DNA of 64,000 bases from Puccinia triticina (Eukaryota; Basidiomycota; Pucciniomycetes; Pucciniales; Pucciniaceae), in contig NC_070565.1 of assembly GCF_026914185.1 (NCBI RefSeq), positions 992,001-1,056,000 of the forward strand. Reading direction: 5' to 3'. Positions 44,243-45,732 of this stretch are shown here, piece after piece (position 1 is the stretch's first letter; each line of letters opens with the position of its first letter). Position numbers and translations under genes: made by a program. The notes under the pieces were generated by a model. It saw only the letters and a program-made list of their open reading frames with translations, made no database searches and had not been told where the DNA came from.

Positions 44243-45627
44243 TCAATTGGCTTGACGAACAAGATGGTTGGTGGTCAGATATCGATGGGCCCAGGCCTGA
44301 AAAAGGTCGATACGTTCCATGTGGTCGAATCCATTCGGAGAAGGGTTGCGGTTAGAGAACGCAACAAAGTCCTCGACCATTCCGACATAGAAATGAAAAA
44401 GGATAGCTGGTTCAACCGTGGCGGGAGTCGTTGGGACAATACCGTGTCGGCGGGTAAGAAGCGCTTCGATTTGATGAGGGCGAAGGAAGGGAAATTCCGT
44501 TATACCATAATCACCGCGAACAGACGGCGAAGGGATGCGCGGGAAGCCCTCAATGGGTTCATTATCGTGGTCAGAAAGTTCATCGATTTCGGATCTGGGA
44601 TGGGCCGGCTCGTTCTCAGTAGAAGCCAACTCATCCACCTCGATAGCCTGCTGAGTTTTGGGCTGCAATGGAAGGCCGCGAGGACGAACTGTCCAAGCGG
44701 GTAGCGGTGTCCAGGAGTCTTCAAGAGCAACTCGGTTGGACGATAAGACCTATGTAGATATACAACTCAATGGGCATCAGCACAGTTCTGCGCTGAGAAA
44801 AGAATCAAAATAGTAACTTACCGGCGCTGGGGAACTGTCAGGGGCTCTTGGATGGAAGATGGGCGAGTCAGGGTTAGGCAAGCAATCTGGGGTTCGAGGG
44901 CAGTAGACCGGCGATCCGGCAACAGGATTAATACCCTCAGGCGGGCTAGAAGTTGGATACGGTGTTGGAGTTCTGAATCGGGGGTGAATCCCAACCAAAC
45001 CGGGAGGGATTGCCGGGGCTGCGACCTCAGCTGCAGAGGAAGTCGAGCCAAGGAGAGTTTGGACGTTCGGAGGGGCCCGATCACTGTTATTAGAACCCAA
45101 GAACTACACAAGATAGGGTCAGATGGCAGTATGGGCAAAGATGACTAAAGAAAATACCTTACCGTCTCTAAAGTCTGCATGGTTGCATCGCCAACAATGA
45201 ACGGTCGAAGAGCCACCGGGGACTCAAGACAGATGTCAGACATCATCAGCGAGTTTGAGAGATAGTCACGCTGGTCCTGGGTCCAGTTCATGTGATCAAG
45301 TGAAGAATGGGTTGGCGGCTCAGCAGGCGCATCAGCACGAGGCGTCTGGCGAACACAACGATCAGTTTCCCTTGAAATAATAAAACATCAGAGATACAGG
45401 GAAAGAAAACCTACCTTGGGGAATGGCTGCCCAAGAGGGTGGTGGTTTAAGAGGTTTTGATCGAAACCCATGGTATCAAGGACCAAGGAATTCATCTACA
45501 GAAGAGAGCATCGTTAGCAAGGATGAAAGTTGAATCTGAAGAAGGGAGGACGCACCTGTTTTGCAGCAGAACTCACACGAGGACGTAAATAATAAGGGTG
45601 TGAAGGTTGGCTAGAGGAGGTAGTCAT
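44243..45627 (-). CDS. Antisense accessory gene of element B (five exons)
   Basis: Minus-strand exons in transcript order: 45627-45556, 45495-45415, 45345-45163, 45103-44822 and 44749-44243 (TGA stop). They encode 24, 27, 61, 94 and 168 residues, 374 in all. All four introns are 57-72 bp, have GT...AG ends (donors GTGCGT, GTAGGT, GTAAGG, GTAAGT) and are phase 0. The protein has no domain I recognise. It has a Pro/Ser-rich middle with PPGLVGIHPRF and a repeated Pro-Val-Tyr/Pro-Ile-Phe motif, an acidic segment (Asp-Glu-Leu-Ser-Asp-His-Asp), and a C-terminal helical part with Gln-Ile-Glu-Ala-Leu-Leu and Met-Val-Glu-Asp-Phe-Val-Ala-Phe. The same gene, decayed, lies in element A at 52875-54679. 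Splicing would allow expression only from the minus strand. Role unknown; regulation of the element is one possibility. Confidence 0.8.
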
Positions 45628-45725
45628 AACAGGGTCGATGGGGATTGAAGGAACTAATGCAAAAGGGTGGTTGGACGCTGAGGAGATGATGGGGAGGAAA
45701 CCTGAATCAACGGAGAGAAGGCTTG

Positions 45726-45732
45726 TTTTATA
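45726..45732 (-). promoter_or_regulatory. TATA box of the antisense gene, element B
   Basis: TATAAAA on the minus strand, about 100 bp upstream of the ATG at 45627. Element A has TATAAAA at 54770-54776, about 95 bp upstream of its ATG at 54679. Confidence 0.6.

What the first reader, a model, noticed from the sequence alone, without database searches (positions are those of the whole stretch)
44243..45732. Spliced, opposite-strand gene conserved in two LTR retrotransposons
Both nested Ty3/Gypsy elements carry, between pol and the 3' LTR, a minus-strand gene with its own TATAAAA box about 95-100 bp upstream of the ATG and phase-0 GT-AG introns. Every exon of element B is a whole number of codons. 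The copies are diverged yet keep the first-exon donor GTGCGT, the donors after the third-exon and fourth-exon regions, PPG-(L/F)-VG-(I/L)-HPRF and the C-terminal helical part. Because the introns splice only from the minus strand, the gene cannot be a by-product of the genomic RNA. Antisense ORFs are known in some plant Ty3/Gypsy elements (Ogre/Retand, Grande, RIRE2 lineages). An intron-bearing one in fungal elements is, to my knowledge, not described.
Basis: partly seen in the sequence, partly recalled or inferred. Interest (0 to 1): 0.88.

Follow-up and report, generated by a model that had tools for sequence, protein, structure and literature searches.

The report
Spliced antisense gene in rust retrotransposons
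Retrotransposons of the wheat leaf rust fungus carry, on the strand opposite their own genes, what looks like a real protein gene with introns that is kept by selection and swapped between elements like a cassette; antisense genes of this sort are known elsewhere, but this multi-intron, shuffled form is unusual.

Summary
Window 45627-44243 (minus) is a five-exon, 374-codon gene with four phase-0 GT-AG introns, 105 bp downstream of a TATAAAA, between pol and the 3' LTR of a Ty3/Gypsy element. It is not chance: against 85% relatives the introns are twice as diverged as the exons and carry frame-breaking indels, the exons carry none, and dN/dS is 0.26-0.29 (null mean 0.81 for one pair). In this genome (Puccinia triticina Pt15 haplotype A) 84 of 113 listed integrase matches have it antisense downstream. 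Two annotated proteins carry the same four exon joins. B and L040 are 87-99% identical in pol, 47-73% in the gene, and 92-98% again up to the LTR; exon blocks are shuffled in a second group. It lies between two hairpin-plus-polypurine modules whose arms covary. Antisense genes of Ty3/Gypsy elements are known, also in a fungus (Boty brtn): a new variant of a known kind. Expression was not testable here; the function, an accessory regulator of the element, is inferred.

The parts
36331..37129 (+). 5' LTR of element B (TG..CA, 799 bp); direct flanking repeat GCGC
   Evidence: 799 bp, 4 mismatches, 0 gaps to the 3' LTR; GCGC on both sides
37670..40240 (+). gag-protease frame of element B
   Evidence: Asp_protease_2 PF13650 E 2.5e-8
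40195..43791 (+). pol of element B (RT, RNase H, integrase), with an in-frame TAG at 41629 between RT and RNase H in this copy
   Evidence: (RVT_1, RT_RNaseH, Integrase_H2C2, rve)
43761..43773 (+). PPT1: AAGTTGGGGGAGA at the end of pol
43920..43951 (+). PPT2 module: hairpin GGTTG-AGGC-CAACC followed by AAGTTGGGGGAGG
44243..44749 (-). exon 5 of the antisense gene (168 codons + TGA); the part used for counting copies; helices predicted in its last 80 residues at low confidence
44750..44821 (-). intron 4, 72 nt, GTAAGT..TAG
44822..45103 (-). exon 4 (94 codons; contains IPPGLVGIHPRF)
45104..45162 (-). intron 3, 59 nt, GTAAGG..TAG
45163..45345 (-). exon 3 (61 codons)
45346..45414 (-). intron 2, 69 nt, GTAGGT..CAG
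45415..45495 (-). exon 2 (27 codons)
45496..45555 (-). intron 1, 60 nt, GTGCGT..TAG
45556..45627 (-). exon 1 (24 codons, ATG at 45627)
45726..45732 (-). TATAAAA, 105 bp upstream of ATG
   Evidence: TATAAA 86-105 bp before the ATG in 11 of 11 copies in which the ATG was located
44154..46153 (.). exchanged cassette: 47-79% identical to L040 in 150-base steps, against 87-99% before it and 92-98% after it up to the LTR (boundaries approximate)
46945..46976 (+). PPT3 module: hairpin TTGTCTG-GGGA-CAGACAA followed by AAGTTGGGGGAGA, next to the 3' LTR
46978..47776 (+). 3' LTR of element B
33035..34198 (+). 5' LTR of element A; direct flanking repeat ACGG. Element B sits inside element A
52875..54679 (-). 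diverged, broken copy of the antisense gene in element A (ATG 54679, TATA 97 bp upstream, introns placed at 54589-54525, 54302-54234, 54008-53931; insertion inside the last exon)
55717..56879 (+). 3' LTR of element A

Best explanation
The feature is an accessory gene that belongs to a large clade of Ty3/Gypsy elements of Puccinia triticina. It is read from its own TATA promoter on the strand opposite gag-pol, and its four introns are removed only from that antisense transcript; because the element's genomic RNA runs the other way, the introns pass unspliced through reverse transcription and persist (this step follows from strand logic and from intron positions shared between families). The product is an acidic, proline- and serine-rich protein of about 370-500 residues with a conserved C-terminal region. 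Shown here: the frame, intron sites, purifying selection between families, a TATA in the 11 copies examined, presence beside most of the listed integrases, annotated relatives with the same exon joins, and replacement of the gene as a cassette or by exon blocks. Inferred: that it is transcribed, spliced and translated; that the protein acts in trans on its own element's expression or replication, as HBZ and the APH proteins do for HTLV; and that the exchange of versions means that its specificity has to differ between co-resident elements.
For: Gene structure. Selection: dN/dS 0.26, 0.26, 0.29 for B against L010-L012; for B and L010, 200 random placements of the same changes gave mean 0.81, lowest 0.44; against the L040-L053 family dN 0.37-0.40 with dS saturated. 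Introns: all four at matching places in 15 of 18 further copies of two subfamilies and one family, and in 4 of 5 more distant copies, L055-L058 but not L059. Annotated proteins P0001 and P0003 carry the same four joins as my models of L048 and L057; the PTTG gene set used RNA-Seq (PMC5295586, passages), the Pt15 set full-length cDNA (PMC9927501, passages). Context: 56 of 62 integrase copies listed with B's frame and 84 of 113 listed with A's have the gene antisense downstream, 52 at 299-709 bp and 78 at 365-809 bp. TATA in 11 of 11. Cassette exchange: integrase dS 0.18 but gene dS saturated for B and L040, sharp identity steps, exon-block shuffling among L055, L057, L058. No basic cluster and low hydropathy in four proteins.
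Against: No transcript, splice junction or protein was seen here, and I do not know whether the annotated models had transcript support. My aligner allowed only phase-0 GT-AG introns, so phase agreement outside B is partly built in. The four proteins examined have no basic cluster that would suggest nuclear import; there is no Pfam family and no solved relative, and the fold prediction of the last exon is poor (pLDDT 45), so the regulatory role rests on analogy. Constraint is weaker than on integrase (0.26-0.29 against 0.13-0.17 for the same pairs). In-frame stops in L010-L012 (one each) are not fewer than in random placements by a clear margin (mean 4.4, lowest 0, terminal stop counted). Elements of the 79-81% integrase band (2 of 14) and the 60-71% band (1 of 12) mostly lack a detectable copy, so parts of the clade live without this version. 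9 of 18 further copies have in-frame stops. Part of the high divergence reflects recombination, not only selection.
Confidence: 0.55

Rival explanations
1. The protein is an anti-silencing factor: it protects its own element family from host methylation or small-RNA silencing, and the exchange of cassettes is escape from recognition.
For: The gene is far more diverged than integrase (52% against 93% aa identity for B and L042), it is exchanged, and 33 of 45 changes within the B subfamily are C>T or G>A, as expected in methylated DNA.
Against: No small-RNA or methylation data were used here; the C>T excess is also the ordinary decay of a methylated repeat; part of the divergence is recombination; no domain match.
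Confidence: 0.2
2. The protein is a structural or trafficking helper of the particle or of the pre-integration complex, not a regulator.
For: A conserved C-terminal region in the seven sequences compared and an acidic, proline-rich make-up; a role in the retrotransposition process is suggested for plant antisense genes in PMC7264820 (parts 1-2 of 3).
Against: A particle part would be expected to be made together with gag-pol; an own promoter and exchange between elements with nearly identical pol fit poorly with a tight fit to Gag or integrase. This is inference.
Confidence: 0.15
3. The antisense transcript, not the protein, matters: it forms double-stranded RNA with the genomic RNA and triggers or tunes silencing.
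For: Antisense RNAs of this kind are discussed in PMC7264820; the gene overlaps the genomic RNA completely.
Against: Selection is on codons: third positions hold 81 of 140 changes between B and L010, no exon indel, intron positions kept.
Confidence: 0.06
4. It is a captured host gene that rides along and serves the host or nothing.
For: Introns suggest capture from genomic DNA (inference); 41 of 124 gene places were not paired with one of the 113 listed integrase matches.
Against: I did not examine most unpaired places one by one.
Confidence: 0.04

Closest known systems
Antisense additional ORFs between pol and 3' LTR of plant Ty3/Gypsy elements (Grande gene23, RIRE2, Retand ORF4, PvRetro13), reviewed in PMC7264820
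   Same: Position, orientation, presence in most copies, mostly no known protein relatives; for Grande an own promoter is reported
   Different: Different hosts; no TRP28/PF04195 match here. No intron in them is mentioned in what I read: PMC7264820 parts 1-2 of 3 ('introns' occurs 0 times) and passages of PMC11963269 ('intron' 0 times). Cassette exchange is not mentioned there either
brtn of the fungal Ty3/Gypsy element Boty (Botrytis cinerea, Zhao et al. 2011)
   Same: Antisense gene between pol and 3' LTR of a fungal Ty3/Gypsy element (as cited in PMC7264820, and PMC8365987, passages)
   Different: Sequence and exon structure of brtn not seen (paper not held), so homology and introns were not compared
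HBZ and APH-2, -3, -4 of HTLV-1 to -4
   Same: Antisense accessory protein genes of a retroelement with spliced transcripts; they lower viral or LTR-driven expression (PMC10186651, passages)
   Different: Their promoter is in the 3' LTR, here the TATA lies 1.2 kb away from the LTR; HBZ is a bZIP protein, here no Pfam match
env-like sense ORFs of LTR retrotransposons
   Same: Same slot between pol and 3' LTR
   Different: Opposite strand; highest 19-residue hydropathy 0.69-1.40 in four proteins, no transmembrane-like stretch

Membership tests
Ty3/Gypsy LTR retrotransposon (host element) | LTRs with TG..CA ends, short flanking repeat, order protease-RT-RNase H-integrase | tested here: met
Chromovirus branch of Ty3/Gypsy | chromodomain at the end of integrase | tested here: not met
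   no chromodomain match at E up to 1 in the 719-residue frame
Antisense aORF between pol and 3' LTR | antisense to gag-pol, downstream of pol, in most copies | tested here: met
   56 of 62; 84 of 113
Antisense aORF between pol and 3' LTR | frame kept by selection | tested here: met
Antisense aORF between pol and 3' LTR | transcribed from its own promoter | not testable with these tools
   TATA 86-105 bp before the ATG in 11 of 11, but no RNA data
Retand TRP28 protein | PF04195 domain | tested here: not met
Boty brtn | sequence homology to BRTN | not tested
   sequence not available
HBZ-like antisense regulator | promoter within the 3' LTR | tested here: not met
   nearest TATA before the ATG at 45732, LTR starts 46978; the true start of transcription is unknown
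HBZ-like antisense regulator | bZIP domain | tested here: not met
HBZ-like antisense regulator | represses the element's LTR | not testable with these tools
   needs an experiment
env-like protein | sense strand and transmembrane segment | tested here: not met
   (highest 19-residue hydropathy 1.23 in B)

The most novel reading that the evidence does not exclude
The antisense cassette is a retrotransposon counterpart of a phage immunity region: a self-specific regulator, with its own promoter, that is swapped whole or by exon blocks between elements whose replication genes are nearly identical, so that families sharing one genome escape each other's control (or a shared host defence). The duplicated hairpin-PPT modules around it would be the template-switch points that make the exchange easy.
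Probability: 0.2. Interest if true: 0.85.

Novelty: new variant of a known kind. Interest (0 to 1): 0.62.

Why it matters
The function of antisense genes in LTR retrotransposons is an open question (PMC7264820 calls for a look at antisense and spliced transcripts). Here is a large natural series, 124 detected places in one genome, with conserved introns, open and broken copies, two exchange cases and annotated gene models, so that coding, splicing and specificity can be tested with existing data. It also shows how introns can persist in an element that replicates through RNA, and that such genes enter annotations as 'hypothetical proteins' (P0001-P0010).

Tried and rejected
Chance ORF: rejected by frame, indel and dN/dS tests. 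Known domain: none in Pfam; none in the PDB sequences (0 matches; best E 0.12 to a designed protein, taken as chance). Fold: one AlphaFold job (A3, three sequences, collected) gave pLDDT 45 and three weak helices; too poor for a fold search, none was run. A second job with nine sequences was not accepted because the machine was busy. Elements without a detectable copy: L066 and L067 have antisense frames between PPT2 and PPT3 but no convincing homology or codon selection (0.40-0.52 in a 254-codon frame of L066 with frame-breaking indels; L067's sense strand even scored higher, 70 against 44): inconclusive. I first thought that the DNA after PPT2 was a relic LTR start; the sequences do not support it and I dropped it. 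Relatives in other species: three protein searches gave 10 proteins, 10 of 10 from P. triticina; one search scored only the 8000 candidates sharing most words, and the database's coverage of fungi is unknown, so this does not show absence elsewhere. Literature: ten answered searches, eight of them on antisense genes or these proteins, one on polypurine tracts and hairpins (99), one to identify the genome (107); among the rows listed I saw no account of this gene.

Full report
WHAT WAS CHECKED. The window is G000:C8:992001-1056000. G000 has 122,823,596 bases in 18 contigs and contig C8 has 7,485,535 bases; these are the total length, contig number and N50 printed for Puccinia triticina Pt15 haplotype A in Table 1 of PMC9927501 (passages read). 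The window holds two nested Ty3/Gypsy elements. Element B has LTRs 36331-37129 and 46978-47776 (799 bp, 4 mismatches, flanking repeat GCGC) and lies inside element A, with LTRs 33035-34198 and 55717-56879 (flanking repeat ACGG). B encodes protease, RT, RNase H and integrase; no chromodomain was matched, and this copy has an in-frame TAG between RT and RNase H.

THE GENE. On the minus strand of B, between pol and the 3' LTR, five exons of 72, 81, 183, 282 and 507 nt (stop included) join in phase 0 to 374 codons. The four introns of 60, 69, 59 and 72 nt begin GTGCGT, GTAGGT, GTAAGG, GTAAGT and end TAG, CAG, TAG, TAG. A TATAAAA lies 105 bp before the ATG. TATAAA lies 86-105 bp before the ATG in 11 of 11 copies in which I located the ATG.

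IS IT MORE THAN CHANCE. A DNA search of the genome gave 24 matches: nine near-identical full-length copies including the window's own (98-100%), three full-length copies at 85-86%, the rest fragments or distant pieces. Between B (L001) and the 85% copies L010, L011, L012, exons differ at 140, 147 and 150 of 1125 sites with no indel; introns differ at 68, 68 and 69 of 253 sites with indels of 1, 2 and 4 nt (Fisher p 5.5e-8, 2.6e-7, 2.1e-7). By codon position the changes against L010 are 35, 24, 81 (p 3e-9). Frame +0 of the joined exons is the only open one in B (L010-L012 have one internal stop each); the other five frames have 7-31 stops. The sense-strand frame -1 also shows a low ratio, 0.32-0.34, as the mirror of the same codon pattern, but has 13-16 stops. 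dN/dS in frame +0 is 0.26, 0.26 and 0.29. For B and L010, 200 random placements of the same changes gave a mean of 0.81 and a lowest value of 0.44; they made 4.4 stops on average (lowest 0) against 2 observed, terminal stop counted, so the stop count alone is not telling. Against the family with about 52% protein identity (L040, L042, L048, L052, L053), dN is 0.37-0.40 and dS is saturated or undefined. Within subfamilies the ratio is near neutral (L001-L009 1.20; L010-L011 0.90; L010-L012 1.53; L011-L012 0.74) and within the 52% family 0.36-0.71, as for copies that decay after insertion. Integrase of the pairs B with L010-L012 is more constrained, 0.13-0.17.

INTRONS. A spliced protein-to-DNA aligner that I wrote, which allows only phase-0 GT-AG introns of limited length, found all four introns at the matching places in 15 of 18 further copies; the other three have three: L026 and L019 carry deletions over intron 4, and in L040 the acceptor of intron 1 is changed. 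9 of the 18 have no in-frame stop, though one of these nine, L026, carries the deletion. Of five more distant copies (about 45% identity), L055, L056, L057 and L058 show four introns at matching places; L059 does not in full. Three wrong-strand controls (L057, L060, element A) scored 41, 33 and 37 against 608, 137 and 149 on the gene strand. Independently, the annotated proteins PTTG_05371 (P0001, partial) and PTTG_07089 (P0003) carry the same four joins as my models of L048 and L057. The PTTG set was built with RNA-Seq (PMC5295586, passages) and the Pt15 set, which holds P0006 and P0007, with full-length cDNA of germinated urediniospores among its evidence (PMC9927501, passages). I do not know whether these particular models had transcript support.

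ELEMENT A. Its copy is recognised with the P0005-type protein: introns at 54589-54525 (GTGCGT), 54302-54234 and 54008-53931, TATA 97 bp before the ATG at 54679, and a C-terminal piece at 53198-52935. The copy has in-frame stops, and an insertion with two 36-bp repeats (53322-53357, 53414-53449) lies in its last exon.

HOW WIDE. Four protein searches of this genome merge to 124 places of the gene, nearly all of the C-terminal exon (the listing was cut, so this is a lower bound). Of the 62 integrase copies scored with B's frame (of 3170 candidates), 56 have such a place on the opposite strand within 6 kb downstream, 52 of them at 299-709 bp; one same-strand neighbour was seen. Of 113 matches listed with A's integrase (112 of 2615 candidates scored; two of the matches lie close together in one place), 84 have it, 78 of them at 365-809 bp: 42 of 45 at 86-100% integrase identity, 28 of 30 at 82-85%, 2 of 14 at 79-81%, 0 of 1 at 76-78%, 11 of 11 at 72-75%, 1 of 12 at 60-71%. 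These 84 pair with 83 gene places; 41 of the 124 places were not paired with a listed integrase. Three protein-database searches gave ten proteins, all from P. triticina.

THE GENE IS A RECOMBINING CASSETTE. B and L040 are 87-99% identical in 150-base steps through integrase and the first two PPTs up to about 44153, then fall from 79% to 47% across the gene and its promoter (47-73% in the steps that hold the gene), and rise again from about 46154 to 92-98% up to the 3' LTR; inside the LTR identity is 96% at the start, then 65-90%. Integrase dS between B and L040 is 0.18, about that between B and L010 (0.16), but gene dS is saturated against 0.33. L042 and L052 show the same step at the gene; beyond the gene their identity to B is lower and uneven (41-95%). 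A second case: L055, L057 and L058 are 95-100% identical through integrase, but in exons 1-3 L055 and L058 agree (95% aa, dS 0.05) against L057 (55-57% aa, dS 1.3-1.5), while around intron 4 and the end of exon 4 it is L057 and L058 that agree (90-92% DNA against 72% for L055 and L058); over all of exon 4 the amino-acid identities are 81% (L057-L058), 76% (L055-L058) and 66% (L057-L055). So the gene is replaced whole and also in blocks. B against L010 is also uneven: 92-96% at both ends of the gene region, 73-91% between.

HAIRPIN-PPT MODULES. In the elements whose stretch reached the places, the polypurine motif AAGTTGGGGGAG occurs at the end of pol (PPT1), again 178-409 bp later (PPT2; 65-70 bp later in L066, L068, L069, L070), and at the 3' LTR (PPT3); the gene lies between PPT2 and PPT3. 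Exceptions: L040's PPT2 has one mismatch, L056 showed only PPT2 and PPT3, and L048, L059 and L062, where no integrase was found in the stretch either, showed none with up to two mismatches. PPT2 and PPT3 each follow a short hairpin. Over ten distinct hairpins that I chose from those seen, 91% of cells pair, 12 cells have changes on both sides (0 of 500 shuffles as high), and the covariation score is 0.467 against 0.182 in shuffles (0 of 500) and at most 0.175 in slid controls; the number of pairs with such changes, 4, is not unusual (144 of 500). In L066-L071, PPT1 and PPT2 were found in 6 of 6 (one mismatch in L067 PPT1 and in L069 PPT2) and PPT3 in 3 of 6.

HOW IT MOST LIKELY WORKS. The protein of B is acidic (pI 5.46), 13.9% proline, without a transmembrane-like stretch or basic cluster, without Pfam or PDB relatives. 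That argues against an envelope role and leaves no domain to name. Because the gene has its own TATA, it could be made when gag-pol is silent; because it is antisense, its introns are invisible to splicing of the genomic RNA and persist. By analogy with HBZ and the APH proteins (PMC10186651, passages) and with the role proposed for plant antisense genes (PMC7264820), I think that it regulates its own element. The cassette exchange adds a specific prediction: versions should not work on each other's elements. The regulatory step is inference; I give about 0.93 to a real, selected, spliced protein gene and about 0.5 to a regulatory role (anti-silencing being the main rival).

COMPARISON. Antisense genes between pol and the 3' LTR are known in plants (Grande, RIRE2, Retand, PvRetro13) and in the fungal element Boty (PMC7264820, parts 1-2 of 3; PMC8365987 and PMC11963269, passages). 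What I did not find in the texts read is a multi-intron gene with intron positions shared between families, or exchange of the gene as a cassette. My searches cover only an open-access library, and the brtn paper itself was not available. I therefore call it a new variant of a known kind.

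Noticed in passing
43761, 43939, 46964 (B); 52339, 52561, 55703 (A); L055, L057, L058, L060, L061, L066-L071: Several copies of a polypurine motif per element, two of them preceded by a short hairpin whose arms covary between families.
   Followed up: yes
L066, L067 (and L068-L071): Elements without a detectable relative of the gene still have hairpin-PPT modules; L066 and L067 have antisense frames between them, but coding could not be shown.
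   Followed up: partly
exon 4, codon of R in HPRF (B); L010-L012, L040, L042, L052: The same arginine codon reads TGA in copies of two different groups, and CAA in L048 and L053: a recurrent C>T or G>A site, perhaps decay of a methylated CpG.
   Followed up: partly
44236 (B) and the same place in L010, L040, L053, L061; element A: A splice-donor-like GTGAGT or GTAAGT follows the stop codon within 4-36 nt in 6 of 11 copies, perhaps a 3' untranslated intron; the cassette edge near 44153 lies close to a possible acceptor at 44156.
   Followed up: partly
30355-31791 and 60170-61771: Two long frames that flank the nested elements are paralogues (28% over 451 residues).
   Followed up: no
9405-10031 and 14084-14569: Two neighbouring frames are paralogues (38% over 161 residues).
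   Followed up: no
53322-53449: Two copies of a 36-bp motif inside the insertion that cuts the last exon of the element A gene, perhaps a small mobile element.
   Followed up: no
62389-63999: Tandem arrays of 43-45 bp units that are also inverted repeats of each other.
   Followed up: no
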